Below, in pieces: positions 4,227 through 42,872 of a stretch of 64,000 nucleotides of DNA. The notes under the pieces were generated by a model that was given only the letters and a program-made list of their open reading frames with translations, was not told the origin of the DNA and ran no database searches. Made by a program: the position numbers and the translations under genes. This DNA comes from Bradyrhizobium sp. CCGB12 (lineage in GTDB: Bacteria; Pseudomonadota; Alphaproteobacteria; Rhizobiales; Xanthobacteraceae), in the NCBI RefSeq assembly GCF_024199845.1, contig NZ_JANADO010000001.1, positions 2,356,001 to 2,420,000 on the forward strand, given 5' to 3'. Numbering within the stretch: position 1 is the first letter of the stretch; each line of letters begins with the position of its first letter.

Positions 4227-7200
4227 TCATTGCGCCAGCTCGTCGAGTAAGGACTTGGCCTGCTTCAAATCCAACGTGTCGAAGCCCTCGGTGAACCAGC
4301 CGTAGATAGGCGCAAGGAGATCGCGGGATTCTCTGCGCTTGCCACGGTCGCGCCAGATCCGGGCCAAGCTGGTGGCAGCGCGCAGCTCCAGGCATTTGGC
4401 GCTCTGGCAACCCGCCACGTCTAGCGCACGCTGAAACCACCCTTCTGCTTCGGTCCCGTCGCCGCTCCGCCTGGCAAGCGTCAGCTCCCCAGTTAATCGG
4501 CAGATTTCCGCCTCCCATCGCCGCTCGCCGGTTTCCTCGACAACGCGCGCAGCCTCGACCAGCGCGGTTAATCCTTGCTCGATTTCTCCGGCCCACGCCG
4601 ATGCTTCAGCCAGCGACGCGAGATAATAGGGCCGACGGATGCGCACGCCCGTCGGCTCGACGGCCGCGAGACCGCCGCGAACCTCCGCGATCCCTTCCAC
4701 CGCCTGCCCGCGTGCCGCGATCGCCCACCCCCGCAAGATGCTCCCAGCCGCCGCCAGATGCGGTGCGATGCCATGCTCGGCGCAAACCGCGATTGCGGTC
4801 TCCGCATGCTCCTGAGCCGGCTCCGCTTCCCGCCGATGCTGGTAGATCATTGCCGCGAACACCAGGGCGAGAACAACGCTGAAGGGGTGCGACAGCCCCC
4901 GCGCCATCCTCACCGCCTCGCGCGCCGTGGCAAGCGCCTGCTCGGGGAAGCCAAGCGGCCACAGCGTGAGGGCCGCGGTGTATCGATTGCAGACGGCTGC
5001 GTCGTGGCCGCCATACAGGAACGTATGGCCACGGTGCGCGTCCGGCCGATACAGCGCCCATCCGGCTTCGAGATGCGTCCGACACGCGGTCAGTTCCGGG
5101 AGATGAAGGAGTGTCGTCCATGCGGCATGATGCGCCTGCAGGAGCAACGCCGGATCGGCGCTCTGCCGAGCGACCGCGAACAGCCCGTCCAATAGGCCGC
5201 GAGCCGCCTTGAACTCGCAGCGCTGCTGGTAAACAAGCCACAGCCCCCAGTTCACGGCATAGAGCTGCGCTACATCGCCTGCTTGCTGACACAGATCGCG
5301 TGCGTGCAGATAGGCTTGCTCCACCTCCGGCGCCGAATAGCTCTTGGTGGCGATCAGCACCGGCGCAAGCACGAGCTGAAGGGCGAGTTCTTGGCGGGCA
5401 CGCTCCGCCGGATCGGCGACCCGCCTGACGAGTGCCAGCCCCTTGTAGAGATGGGCAAGGCACTCGGCATGCGCCGAGCGCTCAGCTGCGCGCTGGCCGG
5501 CCGCCTGCCAGTAGGCAACGGCGTTTTCCGCAAGGTCAGCTTCGGTGAAGTGGTGCGCGAGCACCTCTGGCTGGGTTGCCGCGATGTCCGGAAACGTCTC
5601 TTCGAGCGCCCGGGCAATGCGCGCGTGCAGCGCGTGCCGCCTATTGCGCAGCAATGTGCCATAGGCGGTGTCCTGAACGAGGGCGTGCTTGAACAAATAG
5701 GTCGCGTGCGGCGGGATGCCGTTTCGGAACAGCAACCCGGCTTGCATCAGGCGGTTGAGCGCCGAGACCAGTTCCGGCTCTGACTGCCGCAGCACGGCGG
5801 CTAATAGCACATGAGAGAACTCACGACCTATCACCGCTCCGATTTGTGCTACCTCCTTGGCCGGGCCAAGCCGGTCGAGCCGCGCCATCAGAGAAGCATA
5901 CAGGCTCGCGGGGACCGCCAGCGCTGGAGAGGGAATCGCGGCCGCAGTCTGCATCGCTCCGCGCTCGCCCCCAGCCTCCAGCACCGCCTTCGTCATCTCC
6001 TCGACGAACAACGGGATGCCGTCGGTGCGCTCGACAATGTCCTTTCTGACCTTCGCCGGCAGCAGCTTATTGCCGACGACGCACTCGATGACGGTCCCGA
6101 CCTCGCGATGTCCCAGCCGATTGAGGGCAAGCGTTGTCACATGCGGTTGTCCGACCCAGGGCGCGTCGAACTCAGGCCGAAACGTCACGATCAAGAGTAC
6201 GCGAAGGCTCGCGATCCGGTTCACCGAGCGACCGAACACTTCCAGGCTCGTGGGATCGCCCCAGTGCGCATCCTCGACGATCATGAGCACGGGGCTGGAC
6301 CGCGCCAGGGCTTCCAATTGGACGCCGAGTGCCGCCAGCGTTTTCTGCCGGCGCTGTTCGGGAATAAACTCCAGAGCGGGATAGCGTCCGTCGTTAGGAA
6401 GCGACAACATCTCGGCCAACAGCGCCGCGTCCTGCCGGGACGTCGAAGTCTGCGCCAGGAGCGCATCGAGCTTGTCGAGCTTGGCTTGCGGTATGTCGCC
6501 GTGCACAAGTCCGGCAGCCCGTTCGAACTGCCCGATGATCGGATAAAGAACGCTGTCGATGTGTTGGGGCGAGCAGAAATAACGAAGCCGTGTGTGGGGT
6601 TCGGTCGTCAGGCGCTCCATGAGTGCAGTGGAGAGCCTGGATTTGCCGATCCCGGCCTCACCGGACAGCAGCACCACCTGGCCTTCGCCGGCCTTGGCTT
6701 TTGCCCAGCGCCGTAACAGGAGTTCAAGCTCTTCTTCGCGGCCGACGAGTGCGGTCAGGCCGCCGGGATGCATTGCGTCGAAACGGCTCTCGACAGAACT
6801 GGCCCGCAGCACCGCGAAAGCTCGCACTGGACCTGTGATCCCCTTAAGCTCCGTTGGCCCGAGGTTCTGCAGCTCGAAGAGATTGCCCAGCAGTTTGCGC
6901 GTGGCCTCGGCAATGACGACCGTGTTCGGCTCGGCGATGCTTTGCAGACGGGCCGCAAGGTTCGGCGTCTCGCCGACAATCCCGCGCTCCTGCGCTTCGC
7001 CGGAGCCGACGAGATCTCCGACGACCACCAGCCCGGTCGCAACCCCAACCCGCATCTGCAGGGGCTCGCGAGCTGGGAGGGCAGCAACCGCGTCGATCAG
7101 GGCGAGGCCGGCACGAACAGCTCGCTCGGCGTCATCCTCATGGGCCTGAGGATAACCGAAATAGACCAGAACGCCGTCGCCCATGTATTTTGCCACGAAC

Positions 7201-7583
7201 CCGCCGAAGCTGCGGACGGTCTCGGCAACACACTTCTGATAGGCCGTGATGACCTCGCGCAAATCCTCTGGGTCCATTCGGACCGAGAGCGCCGTCGAGC
7301 CGACGAGATCCGAGAACATTACGGTCACTTGGCGGCGCTCGGCGGTGTCCTCTTCGTGGATTGCCAGAGAAACGTCGAATACTGGCGTGGCTGCGCTCTT
7401 TTCCGCGCGCAGAGCCGCAATCGCATCTAGGAGCATGCGGCGGTGCCCAACCATGGCGACGCCCAAGTCTTTCAAGTCCTCCGCCGTCAGATTGGGCAGG
7501 ACCTTCCCACTGATCTCATTTTCGCGGAATGCCGCCTCATATTGTTCGAGGCCAAGCCTCCGCAGCCAAACTCCGACGTCCAT
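4227..7583 (-). CDS. SAM domain / class III adenylate cyclase / STAND-ATPase signalling protein (paralogue 1)
   Basis: This 1118-residue cytoplasmic protein has four parts: a SAM domain (residues 1-60, WLRRLGLEQYEAAF), a class III nucleotide cyclase domain (about 85-260), an AAA/STAND-type ATPase with Walker A GEAGIGKS (308-315), and a long helical, TPR-like C-terminus. The cyclase keeps both expected metal-binding aspartates (MFSDLVGST near 92 and YMGDGVL near 136) and the NLAAR motif near 208. It may make cAMP in a way gated by the ATPase/repeat sensor; that is inference. The start at 7583 was preferred over 7613 because it matches the N-terminus of the neighbouring paralogue exactly. It is followed by a hairpin terminator. 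Confidence 0.9.
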   Translation of the reverse strand: MDVGVWLRRLGLEQYEAAFRENEISGKVLPNLTAEDLKDLGVAMVGHRRMLLDAIAALRAEKSAATPVFDVSLAIHEEDTAERRQVTVMFSDLVGSTALSVRMDPEDLREVITAYQKCVAETVRSFGGFVAKYMGDGVLVYFGYPQAHEDDAERAVRAGLALIDAVAALPAREPLQMRVGVATGLVVVGDLVGSGEAQERGIVGETPNLAARLQSIAEPNTVVIAEATRKLLGNLFELQNLGPTELKGITGPVRAFAVLRASSVESRFDAMHPGGLTALVGREEELELLLRRWAKAKAGEGQVVLLSGEAGIGKSRLSTALMERLTTEPHTRLRYFCSPQHIDSVLYPIIGQFERAAGLVHGDIPQAKLDKLDALLAQTSTSRQDAALLAEMLSLPNDGRYPALEFIPEQRRQKTLAALGVQLEALARSSPVLMIVEDAHWGDPTSLEVFGRSVNRIASLRVLLIVTFRPEFDAPWVGQPHVTTLALNRLGHREVGTVIECVVGNKLLPAKVRKDIVERTDGIPLFVEEMTKAVLEAGGERGAMQTAAAIPSPALAVPASLYASLMARLDRLGPAKEVAQIGAVIGREFSHVLLAAVLRQSEPELVSALNRLMQAGLLFRNGIPPHATYLFKHALVQDTAYGTLLRNRRHALHARIARALEETFPDIAATQPEVLAHHFTEADLAENAVAYWQAAGQRAAERSAHAECLAHLYKGLALVRRVADPAERARQELALQLVLAPVLIATKSYSAPEVEQAYLHARDLCQQAGDVAQLYAVNWGLWLVYQQRCEFKAARGLLDGLFAVARQSADPALLLQAHHAAWTTLLHLPELTACRTHLEAGWALYRPDAHRGHTFLYGGHDAAVCNRYTAALTLWPLGFPEQALATAREAVRMARGLSHPFSVVLALVFAAMIYQHRREAEPAQEHAETAIAVCAEHGIAPHLAAAGSILRGWAIAARGQAVEGIAEVRGGLAAVEPTGVRIRRPYYLASLAEASAWAGEIEQGLTALVEAARVVEETGERRWEAEICRLTGELTLARRSGDGTEAEGWFQRALDVAGCQSAKCLELRAATSLARIWRDRGKRRESRDLLAPIYGWFTEGFDTLDLKQAKSLLDELAQ

Positions 7584-7692
7584 GATGGCGCCCCGGTTCG
7601 CCTTGCGCTGCATGATCCCGCAGTCGAGACAGCCTGTCTAGAGCGCACTTGGAGGACCGGTTTGGGTCACAAGCCGACGGATCGGAGGACGT

Positions 7693-8054: not shown

Positions 8055-11000
8055 TCATAACGCAAGCGCGTCAAGCAAGGCTTTGGCTTCTTTGAGATCG
8101 GCAGTATCGAAACCTTCCGTGAACGAGCCGTACATCGGCGCGAGGAGATCTGCCGCCTCAGTGCGGTCGCCACGTGCAGCCCAAAGGCGAGCGAGGTCGG
8201 TGACGGCGCGCAATTCGAACGAGCGCGCCCCCTGCGCCTGCGCTATCTCCAGCGCTCGCTCGTAACAGACCTCGGCTTCAACGGTGCCGCTTGCAGCCAG
8301 CAGCAGATTGCCTTGCACGCGATGAATCTCGGGTTCGACGAAGCGTTCATCGGTCTCTTCGGCCAATGCGGCGGCGTCGCGCACCGCGGCAAGGCCTTCG
8401 CTGTGCCGTCCGCATGCCGCGAGCGCCTGCGCCAGCAGGACCAGGTAATAAGTGGTTTGGAAGCGGGCGCCGGTCGCACGATAAGCGGCCAACCCCTCCC
8501 GGATCTCGTTCAGACATTCACCGCGCGGATCGCGCATCACCTGCGCGGAGCCCCGCATGACTCTTCCGGCCGCCACGACCATGGCGAGGCCACGCTGTTG
8601 TGCCGAAGCGATTGCTGCCGTGGCCAGAGCCTCGACCATCGGCCATTCGCGGCGGTAGGCATGCAGAACGCTGCCCCAGTAGGAAACGCGAGAGAGGCTA
8701 TAGCTGTGCTTGACACGTTCGGCCGCTGCCAGAGCTTCGTCACCCATCCGCAACGCCTGGTCCGCATGACCGAGCAGCCAGAAGCACCAGGCACTATAGG
8801 CGTAGCCCGGTGCCGTGACCTCAATGCCGTAGTCGTAGGCGATGCGTGAAGCCTCCGCGTCGTCGATATTGCGACAGCAATCGAGAGCCGCAGCAAAGTT
8901 GCGTCGGGCACGCGCCGCTTCCCCGATATGCAGCAGGCTGATTCCCTGACAGACGTTTCCAGCAAGCAGGGCTCCACGGCTTGATGTCCGCTGCGCCTGA
9001 GTGAGCACCTCCGCTGCGGCGATCATTGCGTCGGCATGGCGTCCGCCCGCAAGCTCGAACAGCCAAACGCCAAGCAACACTGGGGAGACGTTTACGCTGT
9101 CGTTGAGCGCAGCGCACAGTTCTCGCGCGCGGCTGAACGCCGCCCTTGCTTCGGGAGAGGCATAGCCTCTCGCAGCGAAGCTGGCCTGGCCAAGCAGCCG
9201 ACAAAGCGCCAGCTCTTGTTTCGCTCGGTCGGTCGTGTCGGCGAGTTGGACCACCTGGGCGAGACCGGTCGACAGGTGTCCCATCGCCTCCTGGTTGGCC
9301 GATCGCCGGATCGCGTTCTCACCGGCCCGTTGCCAGCAATTGCTCGCCGGACCCGGCATTCCGGCCTCGCTGTAGTGATGCGCGACGAGTTCCGGACTCG
9401 CCTCGCAGATCTGCACGAATTGGTCCACGAGGGCCTGGGCGATTCGGGCATGAAGGGTACGTCTCGCATCGCGCAGGAGCGTGCTATAGGCAGCATCCTG
9501 GACGAGAGCATGTTTGAACAGATAGCTCGCGTGGGGTGGCACGCCCTGTCTGAAAAGCAATCCTGCCGCAATGAGACGGTCGAGCGCCGATCCAAGCTCT
9601 ACCTCGGACCAGCGCGTCACGGAAGCGAGAACGGCATGCGAGAACACGCGCCCGATCGTCGCTCCGATCTGTGCCAGCTCCTTGGCCGAGCCGAGCCGGT
9701 CGAGCCGCGCCATGAGCGAAGCATGTAAGCTTGGGGGGACCGCCAGCGCCGGAGATGGAACCGCCGCGAGCGTGCGCTCGGCGGCGTCCTCGCTCTCCGC
9801 CTCCAGCACCGCCTTGGTGATCTCCTCGACAAACAGCGGGATACCGTCGGAGCGCTCGATGATATCCTGTCGAATGGTTGCCGATAGCAGGTGATTGCCG
9901 ACGACGCGGTCGATCATAGTGTCGACATCGCGCGTGGTGAGCCGATTGATGGTCAGCGCCGAGACGTGCGGCCGCCCGAGCCAGGGCGGATCGAACTCCA
10001 GCCGGAACGTCACGATCAAAAGCACCCGAAGATGCTGGATCCGCTCTACGATCAGACTGAGCAGCTCGAGGCTAGTGGGGTCAATCCAATGCAGATCCTC
10101 GAAGATCATCAGCGCCGGGCGTGCGCGTGCGATTGCCTCCAGTTGAGAGACGAGCGCTTCCAAGGTTCTCTGTCTTCGTTGTTGCGGCGTCAGATCGAGC
10201 GCGGGGTAGCGGCCATCATTGGGGAGCGACAGCATTTCGGCAAAGAGCCCGGTGTCCTCAATCGAGGTCGAGGTCTGCTTCAGCAGTGCATCGAGCTTGT
10301 CGAGCCTTGCTTGCGGCGTGTCGTCGTGCGCCAAGCCCGCGGCTCGTTCCATATGGCCGACGATCGGATGAAGCGCGCTGTCCGTGCTCTGCGGAGAGCA
10401 GAAATAGCGCATGCGGGTGTGCGGCTCGGCGGCGAGATGTTGCAGCAGCGCGGCCGTAAGCCGCGATTTCCCGATTCCGGCTTCGCCGGAAACCAAAACC
10501 ACTTGCCCCTCGCATGCTTCTGCCCTGGACCAGCGGCGAAGCAGCAACTCAAACTCCTCTTCGCGCCCGACAAGGTCGGTTAGACCGGTCGCGTGCAGCG
10601 CCTCGAACCGGCTGGCCACCGAACTCGCTCGCAGTACCGCCCAGGGCCGTGTGGGTCCGGAGATACCCTTGAGATCCCACTGTCCGAGGTCCTGGAGCTC
10701 GAAGAGCATCCCGAGCAGTCTGCGCGTGCTCTCGGCAACGACGACCGTGTTCGGCTCAGCGATCCCCTGCAGCCGCGCCGCGAGGTTGGGCGTCTCGCCG
10801 ACGATGCCACGCTCCTGTGCCTCCCCCGACCCGATCAGGTCGCCGACAACGACAAGCCCGGTCGCAATGCCAACACGTGTTTGCAAAGAGGCACGCATCT
10901 TGAGCCCAGTCACAGCACCGATCAGTTCCAGTCCCGCCCGCACCGCGCGTTCAGCGTCGTCCTCATGGGCCTGTGGATAACCAAAATACACGAGCACACC

Positions 11001-11411
11001 GTCTCCCATATATTTCGCCACGAACCCATCGAATCGGAGCACGGTTTCGGCGACGCATTTCTGATAGGCGGAAATGAGTTCTCGCAGATCCTCTGGGTCC
11101 ATGCGGGCAGCGAGCTCCGTCGAGCCGACCAGGTCAGAAAACATCACCGTGACCTGGCGACGCTCGGCAGCATCCTTCGGGGACCTGTCGGTTATCGTAG
11201 CCGCGCGGGGTACCGCTTTCGCGCTCGCGTCAATGTGCAGGGCGGCGATGGCATCGAGCAGCTTACGGCGGTGCCCGACAAGACCAACACCCAAATCCTT
11301 CAAGTCCTCAGCCGTCAAGCTCGGCAGGATCGTATCGTCGATCTCGTTCTCGCGGAATGCCGCCTCGTACTGTTCGAGGCCGAGGCTTCGTAGCCAACCT
11401 CCGAGGTCCAT
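8055..11411 (-). CDS. SAM domain / class III adenylate cyclase / STAND-ATPase signalling protein (paralogue 2)
   Basis: This 1118-residue protein has the same length and architecture as the gene at 4227-7583, and the two are clear tandem paralogues. It begins MDLGGWLRSLGLEQYEAAF (SAM domain). The cyclase domain has MFSDLVGSTEL and KYMGDGVLVYFG aspartate motifs plus NLAARLQ. The ATPase Walker A is GEAGIGKSR, and the C-terminal half is helical repeats. The conservation of the catalytic motifs in both copies suggests both are functional, with sequence differences concentrated in the repeat region, where an input signal might be sensed (inference). The start at 11411 gives a complete SAM domain. 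Confidence 0.9.
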   Translation of the reverse strand: MDLGGWLRSLGLEQYEAAFRENEIDDTILPSLTAEDLKDLGVGLVGHRRKLLDAIAALHIDASAKAVPRAATITDRSPKDAAERRQVTVMFSDLVGSTELAARMDPEDLRELISAYQKCVAETVLRFDGFVAKYMGDGVLVYFGYPQAHEDDAERAVRAGLELIGAVTGLKMRASLQTRVGIATGLVVVGDLIGSGEAQERGIVGETPNLAARLQGIAEPNTVVVAESTRRLLGMLFELQDLGQWDLKGISGPTRPWAVLRASSVASRFEALHATGLTDLVGREEEFELLLRRWSRAEACEGQVVLVSGEAGIGKSRLTAALLQHLAAEPHTRMRYFCSPQSTDSALHPIVGHMERAAGLAHDDTPQARLDKLDALLKQTSTSIEDTGLFAEMLSLPNDGRYPALDLTPQQRRQRTLEALVSQLEAIARARPALMIFEDLHWIDPTSLELLSLIVERIQHLRVLLIVTFRLEFDPPWLGRPHVSALTINRLTTRDVDTMIDRVVGNHLLSATIRQDIIERSDGIPLFVEEITKAVLEAESEDAAERTLAAVPSPALAVPPSLHASLMARLDRLGSAKELAQIGATIGRVFSHAVLASVTRWSEVELGSALDRLIAAGLLFRQGVPPHASYLFKHALVQDAAYSTLLRDARRTLHARIAQALVDQFVQICEASPELVAHHYSEAGMPGPASNCWQRAGENAIRRSANQEAMGHLSTGLAQVVQLADTTDRAKQELALCRLLGQASFAARGYASPEARAAFSRARELCAALNDSVNVSPVLLGVWLFELAGGRHADAMIAAAEVLTQAQRTSSRGALLAGNVCQGISLLHIGEAARARRNFAAALDCCRNIDDAEASRIAYDYGIEVTAPGYAYSAWCFWLLGHADQALRMGDEALAAAERVKHSYSLSRVSYWGSVLHAYRREWPMVEALATAAIASAQQRGLAMVVAAGRVMRGSAQVMRDPRGECLNEIREGLAAYRATGARFQTTYYLVLLAQALAACGRHSEGLAAVRDAAALAEETDERFVEPEIHRVQGNLLLAASGTVEAEVCYERALEIAQAQGARSFELRAVTDLARLWAARGDRTEAADLLAPMYGSFTEGFDTADLKEAKALLDALAL

Positions 11412-33823: not shown

Positions 33824-33933
33824 GATGTTCACCTCAAAGTGGGGTGAAGCGCATATGCGCCGGCTTGGAGAGGACAAGAAGGCCTGGTATTATCCTAGTA
33901 TTCCAAGAGCCCTCCATCGCGGGAGCGACATCA

Positions 33934-34713
33934 ATGGCCGACCCACGCCGCGTCGAATTCGGCGATTTCCTGAGGTCCCGCCGCGAAAAGCTGTCACCGA
34001 AGACGGTCGGGCTTCCGGCTGGCCGCCGGCGGCGCACCGCGGGGCTGCGGCGTGAGGAGGTCGCGCAGCTCGCCGGCATCGGCGTCGACTGGTACATCCG
34101 CCTCGAACAGGGCCGCACCGTCAGCCCCTCGGTCACCACCGTCGATGCGCTCGCCCGCGCACTGCGCCTCAGCAAGACCGAGCACGCGCATCTGAAGGCG
34201 CTGGCACGCGACGGCGCGAGGGCCGCCTTCGTGCCCGAGATCGTGCCGCTGCCCGTCCGGCGGATGATCGAGAGCCTGAAGCAGCCCGCCTATGTCACCG
34301 GACGGCGCTGGGACGTGCTGGCTTGGAACGCGGCGGCCGAGGAGGTCTTTGGCTTCGGGCAACTGCCGGAGCAGGATCGCAATACGCTGCTCCTGGTGTT
34401 GACGAACAAGCAGACGCGAAAATTCTATGGCGCGGGCTGGGCGGACGTCGCCAAGAGCATGGTCGCGATGTTTCGCGCCACGCACGACGTCTGGGCCGGC
34501 GACCCCGCCTTCGCCGAATTGCTCATGCGGCTGCGCCAGGGCAGTCCGGAATTCGTCAAATGGTGGGAGGCCCATGAGATCCGCAGCACCGCCTCGGGCC
34601 TCAAGACCATGAACCATCCGACCAAGGGCCTGCTCCGGTTCGAGCACACCAGCTTTCAGGCCAATGACGATCCGGCGCTGAAGCTGGTGATTTATACGCC
34701 GCTCGGGGCGTAG
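33934..34713 (+). CDS. XRE-family regulator with MmyB-like ligand-binding domain
   Basis: This 259-residue regulator has an N-terminal helix-turn-helix (FLRSRREKL, GLRREEVAQLAGIGVDWYIRLEQGR). A C-terminal MmyB-like PAS-type domain follows (RWDVLAWNAAAEEVFG, then RFEHTSFQANDDPALKLVIYTP). MmyB-type domains bind small hydrophobic ligands. It probably controls the divergent MDR oxidoreductase. Its last 337 coding bases are repeated near-identically at 41638-41974, which makes this gene the left boundary of an inserted segment. Confidence 0.9.
   Translation: MADPRRVEFGDFLRSRREKLSPKTVGLPAGRRRRTAGLRREEVAQLAGIGVDWYIRLEQGRTVSPSVTTVDALARALRLSKTEHAHLKALARDGARAAFVPEIVPLPVRRMIESLKQPAYVTGRRWDVLAWNAAAEEVFGFGQLPEQDRNTLLLVLTNKQTRKFYGAGWADVAKSMVAMFRATHDVWAGDPAFAELLMRLRQGSPEFVKWWEAHEIRSTASGLKTMNHPTKGLLRFEHTSFQANDDPALKLVIYTPLGA
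34365..34701 (+). repeat. Direct repeat, left copy (3' end of the XRE regulator gene)
   Basis: This 337-bp stretch inside the regulator gene matches 41638-41974 in the same orientation with 9 base differences, 7 of them synonymous. The offset is exactly 7273 bases with no gaps. It bounds the radical-SAM/cyclase segment on the left. Confidence 0.92.
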
Positions 34714-34849
34714 GCTCACAAAGGGCAGGCGTCAGCTCCGAGCGGAAACATCACGGTCAGTTGCCGCACGGCGTTCCGGCTGAAGCTACGCTGAACCCTC
34801 TCGGTGATCTCCCGCAACTCAACGAAGGGTGACGTGGCTTTCCGATGGA

Positions 34850-35386
34850 TCAACCGTATCGCAGAGCGCAACGCACCGGTTGGTAGAACTGCTCACTGTA
34901 TTCTGCACCGCGATCCCGGTCACGGAAGGCATTCAGGTCCGCAACAAGTTGTGCAAATACCGATCCAGTGTGCATCTCATCGCCGAACGTCTCGATAGCG
35001 TGGAGTGTAGTAAAGCCCCAAATAGTGCGATAACGCCCACTGTGCTTTTCACTACTTATTGAAACTGCGTACGTTCCACGGTAGGTCACGTCCTCTGGAA
35101 CTGCATTCGCAATCTTCACCTCATTGTCGATCAGCCATTTTTTGAAGGCATCGTGTTGATCGAATGGGACGTTGTAACCCCATTCAACCACGAGTGCACC
35201 AAGGAGGACGCTATTTTTAAGGAGCGTTTCGATATCAGCCTTACCCTCGCCATGCTTGAGAAGGTCGCAAAACGGGAAAGAGGCGCCAGTTCGCACCTCT
35301 GGTTCTATAGGCTTAATGCTTGGGAAGGTAAGCCTTTCGCCCGCGATAAGACTCGTAACAAGTTGGGTCGGATCAATGTTACTCAT
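34850..35386 (-). CDS. Unknown 178-aa protein of the radical-SAM operon
   Basis: This soluble-looking 178-residue protein begins MSNIDPTQLVTSLIAGERL and ends EQFYQPVRCALRYG. It has no signal peptide or membrane segment and only two cysteines. I do not recognise a family. It has a strong AGGAGG site 7 bases before the ATG and overlaps the PqqD-like gene by 8 bases, so the two are translationally coupled and very likely act together. It could be an accessory partner or even the protein substrate of the maturase; neither is shown by the sequence. Confidence 0.75.
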   Translation of the reverse strand: MSNIDPTQLVTSLIAGERLTFPSIKPIEPEVRTGASFPFCDLLKHGEGKADIETLLKNSVLLGALVVEWGYNVPFDQHDAFKKWLIDNEVKIANAVPEDVTYRGTYAVSISSEKHSGRYRTIWGFTTLHAIETFGDEMHTGSVFAQLVADLNAFRDRDRGAEYSEQFYQPVRCALRYG

Positions 35387-35678
35387 TCAGTCCCTCCTCT
35401 AATTCTATCAGACCTCGTTCGTGCAAATTTTTGAGGCCGATGGCCAGATGACGCCTAGCTTCGCTCTCGGACATCTGGCCTTCCACTTTTTGTCGGTACC
35501 GTTGCTCAATTTCGTACGACGTGCAGCCGTCGCAGAGTTCAAATATCAGCCAAGCGTTAAGGTTCAGCATGAACAGCTTCGGCGGATTGGGCCGAAACAC
35601 CACACAACTCCTCATCTCCTCAACCGGCCGTACCCGGAGGCTTGGGACGCGCCTGTAGCAACCATTCAGGAAGGACAC
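35379..35678 (-). CDS. PqqD-like peptide chaperone (RiPP recognition element)
   Basis: This 99-residue protein has the PqqD/RRE pattern: RVRPVEEMRSCVVFRPNP, then FMLNLNAWLIFELCDGCTSY, then helices ending AIGLKNLHERGLIELEE. Such domains bind the leader of a precursor peptide and present it to a radical SAM enzyme. The GTG start at 35678 has an AAAGGAG ribosome-binding site and lies 59 bases inside the end of the radical SAM gene. An ATG at 35615 would cut the first strand. The overlap indicates one transcript and coordinated translation. Confidence 0.72.
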   Translation of the reverse strand: MSFLNGCYRRVPSLRVRPVEEMRSCVVFRPNPPKLFMLNLNAWLIFELCDGCTSYEIEQRYRQKVEGQMSESEARRHLAIGLKNLHERGLIELEEGLNE

Positions 35679-36663
35679 GCACGTCTACTCCTTTGTTAAG
35701 CAATTTATCGAACGGATCCGGCGCGTCCCAGGCGCCGTGAAACGCGTACGCGGTAGAACGACATCCGCCATGGGAGCCTTGGCTCGATGAACAGGTGGGG
35801 CAGGTGTCGGTAACGCGACCCGATCTCAACTCACGATAGAGCGGGTGTTGCCACGTTTCCATAAAGGGCACATCTTTTATGTTCCCGTAATCAACGTATT
35901 CTCGTAGATAGGCGCAACCTATTGAATTTCCGAACGCGTTAACGGCAGCCATCTGCCAGCACGAATTGCCATTATTTGGATGCCAAGACTGCATAAGTCT
36001 CATGCCGTTTGGCAACCGAAGTGAATCAAGAGCAGCATGCATCTCGTCGAGCGATAGAGCGAATTCCGCCCAGCTATGTTTGAAGCGCCCAAGCGGATAA
36101 GGCCGCAAAATGGCGACTGTCTTGACACCAAGCCTGTCGGCTAACTCAAGAAAGTCCTGCAGATCTCTGACATTTCTTTGATTAAGGATTGTAAGTAGCT
36201 GTGTCTCAATTCCTGCGTCCAGCAGATGTTTGACGGCTTCACAGGCGAGTGCGTGGCTTCCACTCGTTCCAGTGAAATAGTCGTGGACCTCTGCGCGAGG
36301 GCTGAGAATATCGACAAGTACAATACCAACGCCGATCTCTCTCAATTCCCTAGAAAGAGTGCGGGTTATGAGCGTCCCGTTAGTACGAACTTCCGTAAAG
36401 AAACGACTCGATGCGAAAGTAAGGAAGGGCAGGAAGTCGGGCCTGTGAAAGGGTTCTCCTCCCTCGATATAGAGGAACACTACACCCAACTCTGCGATTT
36501 CGTTAAGAAAGCGCTCCCAGTCATCGCCGGTCAGTTCGGCGACAGCCTTTTGGGGCGAGCAATCAGCATAGCAATGCCGGCACGAGAGGTTGCACGTCTC
36601 AGTGAAGCAGATCGAAAGCTTGAGAGGTTTCTCCAACGAAAACGGGTTCTGAATGGAAGCCAT
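35620..36663 (-). CDS. Radical SAM/SPASM-domain peptide maturase
   Basis: This 347-residue radical SAM enzyme has the 4Fe-4S motif C24-x3-C28-x2-C31 (TETCNLSCRHC) and a GGEPF motif at 68-72 in the SAM-binding barrel. C-terminal cysteines C235, C250, C288, C291 and C301 form a SPASM/twitch-like auxiliary cluster set. Relatives modify ribosomal peptides (PqqE, MftC, AlbA and others). The start at 36663 was chosen; 36672 is 3 codons longer. It is followed by overlapping PqqD-like and unknown genes, the core of a RiPP-type pathway. Base composition is less GC-rich than the flanks, suggesting transfer. Confidence 0.88.
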   Translation of the reverse strand: MASIQNPFSLEKPLKLSICFTETCNLSCRHCYADCSPQKAVAELTGDDWERFLNEIAELGVVFLYIEGGEPFHRPDFLPFLTFASSRFFTEVRTNGTLITRTLSRELREIGVGIVLVDILSPRAEVHDYFTGTSGSHALACEAVKHLLDAGIETQLLTILNQRNVRDLQDFLELADRLGVKTVAILRPYPLGRFKHSWAEFALSLDEMHAALDSLRLPNGMRLMQSWHPNNGNSCWQMAAVNAFGNSIGCAYLREYVDYGNIKDVPFMETWQHPLYRELRSGRVTDTCPTCSSSQGSHGGCRSTAYAFHGAWDAPDPFDKLLNKGVDVRVLPEWLLQARPKPPGTAG

Positions 36664-37244
36664 GACGGCCAACCCATATTGTTTCGCAAATCTTCGCGCC
36701 GCAACAATATCAAGCTTACGTTGAGAGTGCTAAAATGGCACAAGATACGTAGATTGGCAACCCTGCAGTAACTTACATGCGATGCTCAGGTTGCAGTTGT
36801 GCCGCGCGATTGTGTCCCCGACGTAGCGCGCAACCGAGCATATTTTGCGAACGCTCACCCAAGGCGCGTAAAAGATCTGCCGATCCGGCTGCCATCACTT
36901 ACAACTCGCATCGTCCTCACGGCAGCCTGGATGTAAAACTACCAATCCGCCGTCTCTTGTCCGGGGCGGCTTGTTGGAGATTCCGTAGCTAGTGCATCTG
37001 TCCGAATGACCGCTTCGGGAAAAGAATGCTGCATGCTCGCAGTCGGTCCCCAACGATGGTCAAGTTCTCACAGACGAGCTCAGCCCGACCTGACCAATTC
37101 ATAGTAGATTGCTGGGCGGTTCGAAAGGAGGCTCTCGTCCCGGCCGCCCTGGATGCGCATCTACGTCTATATTCGATGGCAACCGAGGCAAGTGGTGGCC
37201 GCGTTCACCGCCCGAGCAGACGAAAGTCATCAAACACAAGAGCA
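36664..37244. other. Gap upstream of the radical SAM gene
   Basis: Besides the transposase remnant at 36897-36992, I see no well-supported gene. On the minus strand a 40-codon frame (36773-36895, MAAGSADLLRALGERSQNML...) is the only small frame ahead of the radical SAM gene worth testing as a precursor peptide. Its ribosome-binding site is weak. Confidence 0.4.
36897..36992 (+). pseudogene. Transposase C-terminal remnant (IS481/IS3-like)
   Basis: The frame reads TYNSHRPHGSLDVKLPIRRL and ends at a stop at 36992. This matches the C-terminal end of IS481/IS3-type integrases (YN.HRPHGSL...P..RL). Upstream coding in this frame is not transposase-like, so only the last 30 or so codons survive. It lies in the 580-base gap between the radical SAM and cyclase genes. 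Confidence 0.5.
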
Positions 37245-40200
37245 TCATACAATGAGCCCTTGAGCCTGGCGCATATCTACGGTTTCCGGCTGCCCTGCCA
37301 TCCCAAGAAGTGCATTTATGATGTTACGGCGCAACTCGCTGTGCACCCTCACTTCGGTCGCGTTTTCAAGCCATGTGATTAGACTCCGCAACACGAAAGA
37401 CCCTGCTGCTTGTTCCCGAGCAATATTGAGTGACGCTTCGATGTATCCCTTGGCGCTCGGGTCGCCTAGCCGAAAGCTCACGCATGCGCGCAAGCGAAGA
37501 AGCTCCGCTTGGTAAATTCTCACGCCGGTTTCCTCCACAAGCCCGAGGGCCTCGTTCAGTACGGTCGACGCCTCCGCCACGCGGTCGAGATCGAGGCAAC
37601 ACTCCGCTTCAAGCGCATGAGCATAGGGAATTATCTGACGGGCTCCCGTACTCTGATATTTAGCCTTAGCTGCAGCAAGCAAGGCCCGTGCACGATCGGG
37701 ATTTACTGCACGCTGAAGTGCGGCAAGAATCACTTCGCACCATGCGATCCAGTAAATAAAGCCGTGTTTCTTTGCCAAGCTGTAAGCCTCATCTGCAATC
37801 TGGGCACTCCGCGCAAATTCCCGTGCAGTAAGCAGACGCAACGCATTGACGCCGCAGGCGTAAACGATTGAGTGAGGATGTTCGAGTTTCTGCGCCTGGG
37901 CAACGCTCTCCAAGCTGTGGCGTTCCGATTGTGCTATATGTCCACCGATCCACTCGCTCCATGCGAGCTGCGCCAGCGCCAAGGCTGCCGGATCAGCGCC
38001 ATATCGGAATCGATGGCTCTCATGATGGAGCGAATCGTAACGTCTAAGGACCTCCTCATAATGGTTAGCTGCTTGACGGTGTTCTCCCATGAGCAATCGA
38101 GCAAGTCCTTGCAGGCGATGCGCCTGCAGTATCTTGTCAGAGTCGCATTCTACATCGGCGAACTTGAGGATGCGGCCGCCAATCTCGATGGCGACCGGAA
38201 CGTTTGACCGCACCATAGCATGCGTATGTAACCCCCAAAAAGCGGTGAACAACTGGTCGGATGGCGCCTCTTGGCGAGTCTCGAGAATTCCGGCTGCTTC
38301 TCGAAAAGATTGTTCAACCAACGGCGAAGCGTAACCGTGAGCTGCAATGTATTGTACACCAAGCAGATTAAGCAGTTCTGCTTTCTGACAAGCTCGCGCC
38401 TCATCATCCGGCAAGCAGCCAAATAGTGTGCGGGCGCGTTCGAGGGACAAAATAGACTCCCTAGTCGCCGATCGCCGAGCCGCTTGAACTCCCGCCTTAC
38501 TCCACCAGATCAGTGCCTCGTCAAACATTGACGCTCGTTCGTAATGCTGCGCAATGAGTTCGGGATGTGCGTCAGCAGTCTGTGGAAATTCGTCGACAAG
38601 GACGGCGGCGATCTTGGCATGGATGGCGCGGCGGCGCACTTTAAGCAGACTATTATACCCGACTTCGCGGACGAGGGCGTGCTTGAAGCTGTGGCTTGCC
38701 TGAAGCCCAGCGCCTAAGTCGACAACGAGGCCGGACGCTACCAGTGTTTCGAGCATTGGTGCGAGATCGGCACGCGAAACGTCTAGTACACGCGCAAGTA
38801 CCTGTTCATCGAATTCGCGACCAATCACGGCAGCGATCTGAGCTATCGGCTTCAGGTCTCCTAGGCTATCAAGGCGCGCTGATAACGAGTCGTTGAGTGA
38901 AGATGGCAAGGTGAGCATGTCGCTTGGTGCGGTCGCGACTGGCCGCTGGCCGGCTAGAAGAACGAGCTCCTCGGCGAACAGCGGATTGCCTTCGGCTCTC
39001 GCAACAATGGCGTGCTGGACCTGCATCTCCATCGCTTTGTCGCCGACCATGCCTGCTACAAGGGCCTGCACGGTCTCATCTTTGAGACGCATCACGGAAA
39101 GCCGAGTTACATCGGCGCGATCGATCCACGTAGTCTGGAAGCCGGTTCGCCAAGTCAGCAATACACACGAGCGGGTCGACGCAACGCGACCCATTATTCG
39201 GTCGAGAACCTCCAGCGTCGAGGAATCAGCCCACTGTAGGTCCTCGATAATTAACGCCTGGGGCGTGCTGCGAGAATGCTCCAGCATCCAATCCGCTATG
39301 ATGGTGAAGATCTGCTCTTTGGCTTCGGTAGTAGTAGGGGCATGAAATCCCAATTCTAAGGGCTGCAATTCCGAAGCGCCCTGCGCGAGCAACTTGCTCA
39401 ATATTTCACTTGCGTCAGCATTGACCTGCGACGCGGCCAGCTTAAACCGTGTTGCTACAGCATCGTCGAGTAGCGTAATTCCAATCGCCTGTCGCATTAG
39501 ATCGCGAATCGGCAATAACGGAGAGTGAGTGCCTTCGGGGGCGCACGTGCTGTAGAGGCAAGTACCGCCGCTGACCACAACAGTCTGCCGGAAATAATCG
39601 GCCAATGTGGTCTTGCCAATCCCTGGTTCACCGCTAATGAGAACTGTGTGGCCTCGACCTGCCAAAACACCGTGCCAACACTGATCGAGGAGACTCCGCT
39701 CGATCTCTCGGTTGTAGATCCGCCCAGAACGTGTACTCCGTGTTCGCTCCGAGCCCTTACGCTCGGCGGTTACCTGATGGACCCAAACTGGAGCGGCGAC
39801 ACCCTTCAGCTCAACGGACGCACCCGCAGCGAACTCGAATTGCCAATGCACAAGCTGGCGTACCGTTTCGGTTACAAAGACGGTGTTGGGATGGGCGAGC
39901 TGCTGTACTCGGGCGGCGACGTTTGGTGCTCCGCCCACTATATCGGCGGTAGCGCTTGCGCCTGGAGTACCAATTTTGCCCACCACGACAATGCCAGAAT
40001 CAATCCCCACACGGACGCTGAGCTGCGCACCGCCAATCGGCAACGTTCGGTTGACCTCGCCGATTGCGGCGACGACTGCAAGACCGCCGGATACGGCTCG
40101 TCTGGGATCCTGCTCGTTCGCCTTCGGGTACCCCCAATAGGCCAGAATGCCGTCCCCAAGATAGCGAGCCACGAAACCGCCATGCGCTTCGATCGCTGCC

Positions 40201-40364
40201 GTCGCCGCCCGCCGAAAGGCGACAATGAGATCACCAACATCTTCCGGATCGAGTGTTTCCGCCAAGCGAGTTGATCCCACTAGGTCTACGAACACTACCG
40301 TCACCTGACGACGCTCAGCTTCCGCAAAGCCGCTGAGAGGTTGTCCCTCCACTGTCGCAGTCAT
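37245..40364 (-). CDS. Class III adenylate cyclase / STAND-ATPase protein without SAM domain
   Basis: This 1039-residue protein is a distant relative of the pair at 4.2-11.4 kb. It starts directly with the cyclase domain (RRQVTVVFVDLVGSTRL near residue 20-34, RYLGDGILAYWG near 68-79, NVAARVQQLAHPNT near 148-161). An ATPase with Walker A GEPGIGKT at 245-252 and Walker B-like ALIIEDLQWAD follow, then helical repeats. The catalytic aspartates are kept. The start at 40364 was preferred over 40397. It lies inside the repeat-bounded segment, and its base composition is less GC-rich than that of the paralogues, suggesting separate acquisition. Confidence 0.88.
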   Translation of the reverse strand: MTATVEGQPLSGFAEAERRQVTVVFVDLVGSTRLAETLDPEDVGDLIVAFRRAATAAIEAHGGFVARYLGDGILAYWGYPKANEQDPRRAVSGGLAVVAAIGEVNRTLPIGGAQLSVRVGIDSGIVVVGKIGTPGASATADIVGGAPNVAARVQQLAHPNTVFVTETVRQLVHWQFEFAAGASVELKGVAAPVWVHQVTAERKGSERTRSTRSGRIYNREIERSLLDQCWHGVLAGRGHTVLISGEPGIGKTTLADYFRQTVVVSGGTCLYSTCAPEGTHSPLLPIRDLMRQAIGITLLDDAVATRFKLAASQVNADASEILSKLLAQGASELQPLELGFHAPTTTEAKEQIFTIIADWMLEHSRSTPQALIIEDLQWADSSTLEVLDRIMGRVASTRSCVLLTWRTGFQTTWIDRADVTRLSVMRLKDETVQALVAGMVGDKAMEMQVQHAIVARAEGNPLFAEELVLLAGQRPVATAPSDMLTLPSSLNDSLSARLDSLGDLKPIAQIAAVIGREFDEQVLARVLDVSRADLAPMLETLVASGLVVDLGAGLQASHSFKHALVREVGYNSLLKVRRRAIHAKIAAVLVDEFPQTADAHPELIAQHYERASMFDEALIWWSKAGVQAARRSATRESILSLERARTLFGCLPDDEARACQKAELLNLLGVQYIAAHGYASPLVEQSFREAAGILETRQEAPSDQLFTAFWGLHTHAMVRSNVPVAIEIGGRILKFADVECDSDKILQAHRLQGLARLLMGEHRQAANHYEEVLRRYDSLHHESHRFRYGADPAALALAQLAWSEWIGGHIAQSERHSLESVAQAQKLEHPHSIVYACGVNALRLLTAREFARSAQIADEAYSLAKKHGFIYWIAWCEVILAALQRAVNPDRARALLAAAKAKYQSTGARQIIPYAHALEAECCLDLDRVAEASTVLNEALGLVEETGVRIYQAELLRLRACVSFRLGDPSAKGYIEASLNIAREQAAGSFVLRSLITWLENATEVRVHSELRRNIINALLGMAGQPETVDMRQAQGLIV

Positions 40365-41637
40365 GCAGCCAGTTCCATGGAAGAAGGATTGTCGCAAACA
40401 GGCTTCGATCCCTCATGGGTTGCAACAAGCACAACAAAACGTACATCTTGAAACTTCATCAATAAAGTGGCAGTTTTCGTTCAGGAATCTTCTGCAGTCT
40501 CTTGGGGAATCGCAAACCGCCACGAAGCGGCAGCACCGTGAGTTCGCCCAGCGTTTCGGCGCGAACGAGCCTCACATCACTCTCGACGAGTGATTGTTGC
40601 ATCGCGCTCAGATCAGAGTGGCAAAGGTCCGGGTCTGCCGTGGATGACGGCCGTCAGGGAGAGTTGGCAAATCTTGGTGGCATTATCCGAGTTCATCTTC
40701 GGCTCGCATTGCTGCTTTGAAAGCCGAGGCGCCGCATTAGCGCGTAACTGCTCCTAGACCTAACGTCGACGGTAAGGACGGCGTGCGAGCGCCAGCGGAT
40801 TGTCGCCGAACTGCGTGAGCATCCAGGCAAGCTTTGGCAGATGAGCAAGTAGCTTCGATCGCCCGGGTTGCGGCCGCCGGAGTAAACCACTGCCGGCTTA
40901 TCTCCGAGCCCTCACAAGTCTATCTCGCTTGTTCGAATACCCGGCGACAAAGTTTGCGGCTTAAGTAAGGGCCGCTCCTCCCGAGGAAGTTTCATCCGTC
41001 AGAGAGTAATCTCGTCGGCGGTTGTGGTCGCGCGGGGGTATTGTCGAACCACTGTCCGCCTAACATATCGCGAGGCGAATCCTCCACGTCAGGTTTTGGC
41101 CAACTCAGACGACGGGTGGTAATCGCGACTGCGCCGCAGTCAGCGGCGCAGCGGACGTTGCACGAGCGATGTTCGCGAGAATGGGCAATGGAAGATACGC
41201 ATGCTCACGTCGGTCCCGAAGCCGCCGCCGCCTCAGGCGCAACAGGCATCGAAGTAGTTCAAGAAGAGCGAGCGATGTTTAAACGCCCATTTTCTTGCCC
41301 AGCTCACGGCATCGCCCGCTCTGTTTCAATAGTTCTCTGCATCATCGTTTGGAGGGGATTAGCGATGGCCATTTCGCGCCCATATATCGCATTGGTTTCA
41401 GTCGCGTCATTGGCCAGACGAAGGGGACGTACAAGTTCGTCAAGACGAACTGAGGTAGCCCCCGAATTGCAGTAGCTGCGCACGGTTGAGAAGCCAGCGA
41501 TATGTGTCGGCTCTGCATAAAGCTGTCATACGATCGCTAGACCATAGGGGTTCGTTGGGGCTCGTTCGCTTATCGAGTATGCTTCGATCATTCGCCGTCC
41601 GAAATGAGTCCGGTGGGGTTCTCGGTGTCGGTCAGTT
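40365..41637. other. Gene-poor stretch at the right end of the island
   Basis: I find no credible gene in about 1.27 kb. Several short frames exist (for example 41041-41475) but have no recognisable motif, ribosome-binding site or consistent codon use. The region looks like decayed DNA between the cyclase gene and the right copy of the direct repeat. Confidence 0.5.
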
Positions 41638-41980
41638 GCCGGAGCAGGATCGCAATACGCTGCTCCTGGTGTTGACGAACAAGCAGACGCGAAAATTCTA
41701 CGGCGCGGGCTGGGCGGACGTCGCCAAGAGCATGGTCGCGATGTTCCGTGCCACGCACGACGTCTGGGCCGGCGATCCCGCCTTCACCGAATTGCTCATG
41801 CGGCTGCGCCAGGGCAGTCCGGAATTCGTCAAATGGTGGGAGGCGCATGAGATCCGCAGCACCGCTTCGGGCCTCAAGACCATGAACCATCCGACCAAGG
41901 GCCTGCTCCGGTTCGAGCACACCAGCTTCCAGGCCAATGACGATCCGTCGCTGAAGCTGGTGATTTATACGCCGGTCTAA
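41638..41980 (+). pseudogene. Detached 3' fragment of an XRE/MmyB-type regulator gene (right direct repeat)
   Basis: This fragment encodes the C-terminal 113 or so residues of the regulator at 33934-34713 (from PEQDRNTLLLVLTNKQTRKF to LKLVIYTPV) and then stops. The helix-turn-helix part is missing, and the sequence before 41638 is unrelated. There are 9 base differences from the left copy over 337 bases, mostly synonymous, so it came from a functional gene. It marks the right boundary of the 6.9-kb segment. Confidence 0.88.
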
Positions 41981-42096: not shown

Positions 42097-42396
42097 CTAG
42101 AGATCGATGCTAACGGCGATGTTTCGGCCCTGCAGTTGGGCAATCTTCATTCCCTCAGCCTGCACCTGCGCAAACTCCGGGTCTTTTGCCACGGCCTCCT
42201 GCACTTTGCCGTAAACTTCCCAATTGGCGTAGCGCGTCGTGACCAGCAATTCTCCTGCCCACGCACCGGTGTGGAAACGGGAGAGGCGAAGAAATTCGGC
42301 GCCATGTTTCTCAAAGATTTTCTTCCCCCGCTTGATAATCTGGACCATTTCCTCGGTCTTGTCGGTCTTGAAGCGAGCAAATTGAACGATCGGCAT
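42097..42396 (-). CDS. NIPSNAP-like/ABM-fold small protein
   Basis: This 99-residue soluble protein starts MPIVQFARFKTDKTEEMVQI and contains RLSRFHTGAWAGELLVTTRYANWEVYGK, the pattern of dimeric alpha-beta barrel (NIPSNAP/ABM-like) proteins. These often bind or oxidise small molecules, but no function can be assigned. The start at 42396 has a GGAGG ribosome-binding site 7 bases upstream. A longer frame from 42534 adds unrelated residues. It stands alone. Confidence 0.72.
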   Translation of the reverse strand: MPIVQFARFKTDKTEEMVQIIKRGKKIFEKHGAEFLRLSRFHTGAWAGELLVTTRYANWEVYGKVQEAVAKDPEFAQVQAEGMKIAQLQGRNIAVSIDL

Positions 42397-42872
42397 GGGA
42401 TACCTCCATAGTTGTGTAAACTCTCCAAGAGGCATGTATCGAGCAACGTTTGAGGAGCGAACCTCCCGTTCGATCTCGATGAAAGTTCGTCTTCGGCGGC
42501 TTGATCCTGGTTCAGACTTCGCAAGCGGAAGCAACTCTGCGTCTTCTCGGCGGATGGGTTCGGATCGTCACCGGCAGCCTCGTGGCCGAGCGGCCGCAAT
42601 GCCCGCTGGCGGGCGTAGCTGAAAATTGAACCGACGGACTCGTGGTGCTACGCTTCAGCCACGTCATTCCGGTTTCGGTCTGATGCGGCGGGCGATCGGG
42701 CTTACGGACTACCGCCCGTTCATTTTGAAATTGGAATACTTGAGCCAATGCGCCCCGCCTCCGGCCCCCCTTTTGAGCTCGGTCGGACAATGCTTTTCAT
42801 TGGCCTCCGTTCTTCCCATTGACTCGGAGGCGGGTTCTTTCGGTCGAACTTTGCAATAAGTCGATCGTCGAC
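42397..42872. other. Intergenic stretch
   Basis: This contains the divergent upstream regions of the NIPSNAP-like gene and the exported protein at 42873. I see no gene or convincing regulatory element in it. Confidence 0.5.

What the first reader, a model, noticed from the sequence alone, without database searches (positions are those of the whole stretch)
34850..36663. Uncharacterised radical-SAM/SPASM + PqqD-like + 178-aa protein operon
Seen: three minus-strand genes overlap by 59 and 8 bases, each of the last two with a strong ribosome-binding site (AAAGGAG, AGGAGG). The first has C-x3-C-x2-C and a SPASM-like Cys set; the second fits a RiPP recognition element. Known: this pair is the core of peptide-modifying pathways such as PQQ and mycofactocin. 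Inference: this is a RiPP-type system whose third member is a protein family I do not recognise. No transporter, protease or obvious precursor is present, so it may modify the 178-aa protein itself, or a peptide encoded elsewhere. The lower GC than the flanks fits acquisition by transfer.
Basis: partly seen in the sequence, partly recalled or inferred. Interest (0 to 1): 0.82.

Follow-up and report, generated by a model that had tools for sequence, protein, structure and literature searches.

The report
Radical-SAM cassette modifying its neighbour protein
A four-gene bacterial cassette pairs a radical enzyme and its recognition helper with a 178-residue protein that looks like the enzyme's own target, and with a gene for an enzyme that makes a signalling nucleotide; what it does is still unknown.

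Summary
The three-gene operon is real and as described. Profile searches confirm a radical SAM/SPASM enzyme and a PqqD-type recognition protein (PF05402 in 11 of 11 orthologues). The 178-aa protein (p178) has no Pfam match. In Bradyrhizobium the pairing is exact: the 9 of 265 genomes with full-length p178 are the 9 with this radical SAM enzyme. These cyclases separate from 11 paralogues of this genome, and all four genes form a block shared with another genome at a different site. p178 has a disordered-looking N-terminus with a conserved motif (mostly [LIV]xxP...R[ST]), like published PqqD-class recognition sequences, ahead of a predicted alpha/beta-barrel domain. In five loci, all of one syntenic group, no separate precursor gene fits. 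Best reading: p178 is the substrate, as QhpC is of QhpD; the cyclase is regulatory. No modification has been shown. New variant of a known kind.

The parts
35620..36663 (-). radical SAM/SPASM maturase, 347 aa
   Evidence: PF04055 66.9 bits, PF13186 28.3 bits; nearest solved relative PqqE 6c8v; 11 orthologues aligned
35379..35678 (-). PqqD-like RiPP recognition element, 99 aa, GTG start inside the radical SAM gene
   Evidence: PF05402 over its cut-off by 0.8 bits, and matched at E<=0.1 in 11 of 11 orthologues; model beta-beta-beta-alpha-alpha-alpha; the seven best Foldseek matches are all RRE or PqqD chains, but E is 0.14 to 1.4
34850..35386 (-). p178, 178 aa, proposed substrate protein
   Evidence: 63 and 103 homologues; beside the radical SAM and PqqD-like genes in the 11 loci inspected
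35210..35386 (-). p178 residues 1-59, proposed N-terminal leader, low confidence in the model
   Evidence: pN/pS 0.20 for residues 21-39 against 0.41 for 40-59 and 0.31 for 60-169 (no significance test)
35276..35332 (-). p178 residues 19-37, recognition-like motif L-x-x-P-x-V...P-E-V-R-[ST]-G
   Evidence: P22 in 36 of 37, R32 in 37 of 37, L/I/V three before P22 in 28 of 37
34877..35209 (-). p178 residues 60-170, dimeric alpha/beta-barrel (ABM/NIPSNAP-like) domain
35174..35182 (-). p178 W69-G70-Y71, candidate modified site (inference)
   Evidence: WGY in 35 and WGF in 2 of 37 rows; Q-G-F in the short relative P0101
37245..40397 (-). class III nucleotide cyclase - AAA ATPase protein with a TPR-like C-terminal part, 1050 aa (ATG 11 codons in, at 40364)
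   Evidence: PF00211 67.3 bits, PF13191 64.9 bits, TPR models below their cut-offs; TIGR03903 446.8 bits, below its 705.75 cut-off; next to the operon in 10 of 11 loci, one gene away in the other
34752..40622 (.). block shared with G070 (L015) at a different chromosomal site
   Evidence: 34752-36832 at 91.6% and 36983-40622 at 91.4% DNA identity
34355..34704 (.). direct repeat, left copy: 3' part of the MmyB-like regulator gene 33844-34713
   Evidence: 96% identical to 41628-41977
41628..41977 (.). direct repeat, right copy: truncated regulator copy at the far side of the block

Best explanation
This is a self-contained protein-modification cassette. The PqqD-like protein grips the N-terminal leader of p178 by its [LIV]xxP...PEVR[ST]G segment and presents p178 to the radical SAM/SPASM enzyme, which installs a radical-made modification on the alpha/beta-barrel domain or its C-terminal tail. 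My guess for the site is the W69-G-Y71 segment. The modified p178 is the product: a modified binding protein or enzyme rather than a small peptide. The neighbouring cyclase-ATPase protein senses a signal and makes a cyclic nucleotide that controls the cassette or its output. SHOWN (by sequence): operon, domains, exact co-occurrence within the genus, conserved cyclase linkage, a conserved N-terminal motif in a segment predicted disordered, no room for another gene in five loci of one syntenic group. INFERRED: that p178 is the substrate, that the motif binds the PqqD-like protein, the site, the chemistry and the role of the cyclase.
For: Nine of 265 Bradyrhizobium genomes have full-length p178 and the same nine have the radical SAM enzyme at E<=1e-60, adjacent and in the same order in all nine; in the 385-genome class sample the same two genomes have both. 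Two distant loci, G740 (p178 40% identical) and a Microvirga plasmid (29%), keep all four genes. In L016-L019 and L021 the gaps on both sides of the operon are 66-123 bp, so no ordinary separate precursor gene fits. N-terminal motif. A 2025 survey reports that PqqD-group recognition elements bind W/Y/LxxP/L/I sequences (PMC12710340, section 7 read). Precedent for a leader-bearing protein modified by a radical SAM enzyme and cut by a subtilisin-like protease: QhpC/QhpD/QhpE (PMC7876137, passages); G740 has a subtilase in the cluster (PF00082 111 bits). Operon-linked cyclases separate from 11 same-genome paralogues, 100/99.9.
Against: No modification, binding or activity was tested. The p178 model is weak (mean pLDDT 63; residues 16-42 and 170-178 under 50) and no complex could be modelled. 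LxxP is a short, common pattern; the match is positional, not statistical, and 9 of 37 rows, and the Microvirga protein L030, have no L, I or V three before the proline. A substrate that is mostly a conserved folded domain, with no variable core, is unusual for RiPPs. The subtilase is present in 1 of 11 loci. The five loci without room for another gene belong to one syntenic group, tiny or overlapping ORFs are not excluded, and the other four Bradyrhizobium loci have a gap of over 350 bp to the next ORF of 300 aa or more on at least one side. The cyclase tree is less clean with the long-branched paralogue L044 kept (2 changes, one origin in 32% of bootstrap trees), it is unrooted, its paralogues come from one genome, and the window's cyclase is only about 33% identical to that of the other Bradyrhizobium group although the radical SAM enzymes are about 80% identical. 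Six of the nine Bradyrhizobium loci share flanking genes, so the 11 loci are not independent.
Confidence: 0.58

Rival explanations
1. p178 is an enzyme or binding partner of the pathway (an ABM-type monooxygenase, cyclase or carrier), and the substrate is a small peptide encoded elsewhere in the genome.
For: Many solved chains with the nearest fold are named as enzymes or putative monooxygenases. p178 is conserved along most of its length, unlike most precursor peptides.
Against: No ordinary gene fits beside the operon in L016-L019 and L021. The disordered N-terminus is conserved and looks like a recognition sequence. A scattered peptide gene would have had to move along with the cassette.
Confidence: 0.24
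2. The radical SAM enzyme works on a small molecule such as a haem or tetrapyrrole held by p178, and the PqqD-like protein is an adaptor.
For: The best NCBIfam scores are haem b synthase AhbD (134 bits) and NirJ2 (126 bits), ahead of GeoRSP (120) and mycofactocin MftC (119); some chains with the same fold bind haem (MhuD, IsdI).
Against: AhbD is far below its cut-off of 500 bits and matches in two pieces; MftC matches over nearly full length. No alignment column has His in more than 30% of 37 p178 rows, so there is no conserved His haem ligand. A PqqD-type partner points to a peptide or protein substrate.
Confidence: 0.08
3. The cyclase is an unrelated neighbour carried along on the same island.
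For: This genome has 14 matches to such cyclases, the operon-linked one included, and two more lie in this window; the orientation differs between loci, and in G740 another gene lies between.
Against: It is next to the operon in 10 of 11 loci and one gene away in the other, across three genera; it lies inside the block shared with G070; operon-linked cyclases separate from the other paralogues.
Confidence: 0.12

Closest known systems
Quinohemoprotein amine dehydrogenase biogenesis (QhpC, QhpD, QhpE)
   Same: A leader-bearing protein, not a short peptide, is modified by a radical SAM enzyme; a subtilisin-like protease removes the leader (PMC7876137, passages), and one relative here has a subtilase in the cluster
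   Different: Here there is a discrete PqqD-like protein, an alpha/beta-barrel target without widely conserved cysteines for thioether bonds, and a nucleotide cyclase; no dehydrogenase subunit was recognised among the neighbours examined
PQQ biosynthesis (PqqA, PqqD, PqqE)
   Same: Radical SAM/SPASM enzyme plus a PqqD-type peptide chaperone; PqqE 6c8v is the nearest solved relative
   Different: Far below the PqqE and PqqD equivalog cut-offs (96 of 381 and 12 of 46 bits); a 178-aa folded partner instead of a short peptide
Mycofactocin (MftA, MftB, MftC)
   Same: Recognition element plus radical SAM/SPASM enzyme (recalled for MftB); nearly full-length profile match to MftC (119 bits)
   Different: Below the MftC cut-off of 265 bits
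TOMM system kinase/cyclase fusion protein (TIGR03903)
   Same: A related cyclase-ATPase protein already linked by NCBI's model name to a RiPP-type system; adenylate cyclases are also noted in ATP-grasp RiPP loci (PMC8939145, passages)
   Different: 446.8 bits against a cut-off of 705.75; the match begins at profile position 281, so the N-terminal part (the kinase, by the model's name) is missing
ABM / NIPSNAP dimeric alpha/beta-barrel proteins
   Different: No usable sequence match to these Pfam families; carries an N-terminal extension of about 59 residues

Membership tests
RRE-dependent RiPP pathway | peptide-tailoring enzyme (here of radical SAM/SPASM type) | tested here: met
   PF04055 and PF13186 over cut-off; activity not tested
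RRE-dependent RiPP pathway | RiPP recognition element (PqqD-like) | tested here: met
   PF05402 in 11 of 11 orthologues at E<=0.1, window copy over the cut-off by 0.8 bits; best fold hits are all RRE but weak
RRE-dependent RiPP pathway | precursor with N-terminal recognition sequence and modified core | tested here: inconclusive
   recognition-like motif conserved; the rest is a folded domain, and no modification was measured
RRE-dependent RiPP pathway | protease and/or exporter in the cluster | tested here: not met
   no such gene was recognised inside the shared block of the window; the G740 subtilase finds no match in the window or the other loci; an MFS gene lies beyond the cyclase in L016
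PQQ biosynthesis | PqqE and PqqD equivalog scores | tested here: not met
   96 of 381.35 bits and 12.1 of 46 bits
Mycofactocin | MftC equivalog score | tested here: not met
   119.3 of 265 bits
Quinohemoprotein amine dehydrogenase biogenesis | Cys residues for Cys-Asp/Glu thioether bonds in the substrate | tested here: not met
   the best-kept Cys columns hold Cys in 7 of 37 p178 rows
Quinohemoprotein amine dehydrogenase biogenesis | subtilisin-like leader protease | tested here: inconclusive
   a subtilase in G740 only, 1 of 11 loci; its substrate is unknown
TOMM kinase/cyclase fusion (TIGR03903) | curated score and N-terminal part | tested here: not met
   446.8 of 705.75 bits, match begins at profile position 281
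ABM/NIPSNAP proteins | Pfam sequence match | tested here: not met
   0 families for p178; 1 of 40 relatives hits NIPSNAP, at E 0.19
ABM/NIPSNAP proteins | dimeric alpha/beta-barrel fold | tested here: met
Pycsar anti-phage system | cyclase plus dedicated cyclic-nucleotide effector | tested here: inconclusive
   the cyclase domain matches PycC models (71.8 bits); no effector was recognised in the block

The most novel reading that the evidence does not exclude
A cyclic-nucleotide-controlled protein-maturation system: a STAND-type cyclase senses a signal, and a PqqD-guided radical SAM enzyme converts an alpha/beta-barrel protein into an active form by a radical-made residue or cross-link (for example at the invariant W-G-[YF]), creating a protein-derived cofactor or binding site in a fold for which I know of none. 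It would be a widespread, unnamed class: the radical SAM family has 694 members at E<=1e-60, the listed ones including names from Mesorhizobium, Acetobacteraceae, Pirellulales and Geobacillus.
Probability: 0.22. Interest if true: 0.85.

Novelty: new variant of a known kind. Interest (0 to 1): 0.62.

Why it matters
If p178 is the substrate, radical SAM chemistry guided by a recognition element reaches a folded domain of about 110 residues rather than a short peptide, which would widen what counts as a RiPP-type pathway and give a new protein-derived modification to characterise. The conserved cyclase would tie such a maturation to second-messenger signalling. The system is small (three genes to co-express) and directly testable by mass spectrometry.

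Tried and rejected
Pfam and NCBIfam for p178: no usable match. PADLOC: the cyclase hits PycC models (71.8 bits) and the radical SAM enzyme hits prokaryotic viperin models (50.4 bits), both explained by shared superfamily; I do not file the cassette as a defence system. A CRP-type site search in the window gave 10 matches against 15.3 expected by chance: nothing. Viral contigs: one 30% partial radical SAM match. Plasmids: one record with p178, two with a radical SAM match at E<=1e-30, the second a mycofactocin maturase. Phage records were not searched. The G740 family search covered only 2 genomes, one of them G740. The PDB sequence search with the PqqD-like profile gave weak matches only, the third being the lasso RRE TfuB1 at E 0.085. 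Contig-length matching of p178 and radical SAM metagenome hits gave 9 pairs over 8 lengths, against 0-4 pairs at each offset of 1-11 bases: circumstantial, using the 98 of 103 p178 hits that have a contig length and the 120 listed of 694 radical SAM hits.

Literature: five full-text searches combining radical SAM with PqqD/cyclase/RiPP, ABM, maturase/Rhizobiales, NIPSNAP or Bradyrhizobium gave 1, 0, 0, 0 and 1 papers; I read passages of the first (PMC8939145) and only the listing of the last. Four further searches gave papers of which I read passages of PMC12710340 (and its section 7), PMC7470986, PMC5715301 and PMC7876137. What I read does not describe this cassette; most subscription papers are not in the library, so I do not claim that it is unpublished.

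Full report
OBSERVATION. The three ORFs, their 59- and 8-base overlaps and their ribosome-binding sites are as reported. The first protein matches Radical_SAM (66.9 bits) and SPASM (28.3 bits), the second PqqD (24.2 bits, cut-off 23.4), the third nothing in Pfam. Eleven orthologous radical SAM proteins keep C24, C28, C31, C35, C141, C235, C250, C288, C291 and C301. Against the seven-cysteine SPASM pattern given in PMC5715301 (passages), the x5 position (Cys in anSME, Asp319 in PqqE) is Ser or Thr in 11 of 11, and the last position is Asp in 10 of 11 and Cys in one. The second auxiliary cluster is therefore incomplete or unusually ligated; this is my reading of the alignment.

THE PqqD-LIKE PROTEIN. 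All 11 orthologues match PF05402 at E<=0.1 (best 1.3e-8). An AlphaFold2 model from ten sequences (mean pLDDT 64) shows three strands followed by three helices. The seven best Foldseek matches in the PDB are lasso-peptide B1 recognition proteins and PqqD, although no E-value is below 0.1. The PDB profile search was weak. I take it as a recognition element with good but not strong support.

CO-OCCURRENCE. Of 265 Bradyrhizobium genomes, ten match p178, nine of them over the full length; nine have the radical SAM enzyme at E<=1e-60, the same nine, and all nine keep radical SAM, PqqD-like, p178 in order. In a class sample of 385 genomes only G000 and G740 have either, and both have both. In 397 genomes of the order only three, all of this genus, had p178. 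A plasmid of Microvirga ossetica has the same set, with p178 at 29% identity and unannotated. The radical SAM family is wider: 694 proteins at E<=1e-60, the 120 listed including names from Mesorhizobium, Acetobacteraceae, Pirellulales and Geobacillus. I could not see the neighbours of those, so I cannot say whether p178 is always beside them.

A FOURTH GENE. A nucleotide cyclase-ATPase gene is next to the operon in 10 of 11 loci: co-directional upstream in the window and G070, divergent in the other eight. In the eleventh, G740, it is also divergent but a subtilase gene lies between it and the radical SAM gene. This genome has 14 matches to such proteins, this one included, so chance adjacency had to be checked. 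A tree of the 11 operon-linked cyclases and 11 paralogues of this genome puts the operon-linked ones on one side of a branch with support 100/99.9. The tree is unrooted, and within the operon side the window and G070 stand on a long branch of their own. Keeping the very long-branched L044 gives two changes, one origin not excluded. The window and G070 share 34752-36832 and 36983-40622, that is all four genes, at 91.6 and 91.4% DNA identity, while the flanks compared differ. Six of the nine Bradyrhizobium loci share flanking genes and count as one placement. The window's cyclase is only about 33% identical to the other group although the radical SAM enzymes are about 80% identical: either it was exchanged for another lineage or it evolves fast. 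This is unexplained.

ACQUISITION. The block lies between an intact MmyB-like regulator gene (33844-34713) and a truncated second copy: 34355-34704 and 41628-41977 are 96% identical. Of four relatives examined, G088 has a clean site without the insert: the sequence matching window 34738 is followed, after 88 bases, by sequence matching window 43942. In G008 and G023 other sequence follows before the right flank resumes, and in G060 no right-flank match was found. Operon GC is 52% against 64%; in G740 operon and surroundings are alike (69% and 70%).

SUBSTRATE. In L016-L019 and L021 the gaps between operon and neighbours (ORFs of 300 aa or more) are 66-123 bp on both sides, which leaves no room for an ordinary precursor gene. 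These five belong to one syntenic group. The other four Bradyrhizobium loci have at least one gap of more than 350 bp by the same measure, and ORFs nested in other genes were not excluded. A 2025 survey states that PqqD, FusE, McjB and StsC groups bind a W/Y/LxxP/L/I recognition sequence and that YxxP varies to LxxP (PMC12710340, section 7). p178 carries L, I or V three residues before P22 in 28 of 37 rows, L in 19. The pattern is short, so this is a positional agreement and not a statistical proof. The nearest working precedent is QhpC: a protein with a 28-residue leader needed for interaction with the radical SAM enzyme QhpD, then cut by the subtilisin-like QhpE (PMC7876137, passages). The G740 cluster has a subtilase (111 bits). 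Cysteines that QhpD chemistry would need are absent from most p178 members (best columns 7 of 37), so the chemistry must differ. The W-G-[YF] site is my guess, prompted by its near-invariance and by recalled aromatic cross-links made by related enzymes; no call tests it.

VERDICT. A real four-gene cassette with signs of mobility, in which a PqqD-guided radical SAM enzyme most likely modifies a barrel-fold protein encoded beside it. It is a new variant of a known kind; its function, chemistry and the role of the cyclase are open.

Noticed in passing
window 36777-36992 (+): A 71-aa ORF containing YNSHRPHGSL resembles the C-terminus of an IS3-type transposase (recalled, not searched); a possible transposase remnant between the cyclase and the operon.
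   Followed up: no
window 4227-7613 and 8055-11411 (-): Two more cyclase-ATPase genes in tandem, paralogues of the operon-linked one (L033, L035).
   Followed up: partly
window 42097-42534 (-): A small DUF6854-like protein, 21.5 bits below the cut-off of 27, near the right end of the island.
   Followed up: no
L030 (Microvirga ossetica plasmid NZ_CP016618.1) 11605-12573: PqqD-like and p178-like genes are not in the PLSDB gene table, which is incomplete by design, while the radical SAM and cyclase genes beside them are.
   Followed up: yes
P0078, P0085 and P0184 (longest contig 6645 bases each): Two different p178-type proteins and one radical SAM protein have the same longest contig length, suggesting a locus with two p178 paralogues.
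   Followed up: partly
L023 9126-9580 (G011): A distant barrel relative of p178 without a radical SAM neighbour seems split over two reading frames.
   Followed up: no
G000:C1:223065 and 3800583 (L003, L004): Two other PqqD-type domains in this genome: the first strong (56.5 bits) with a radical SAM neighbour 24% identical to ours, the second inside a 378-aa frame.
   Followed up: no
L029 9561-10628 (-): A CRP-type regulator with a cyclic nucleotide-binding domain lies convergent to p178 in G740, which would fit a cyclase-driven circuit.
   Followed up: no
P0102 (149 aa): A p178-like segment preceded by TPR-like sequence on a 1020-base contig; possibly a chimaeric assembly.
   Followed up: no
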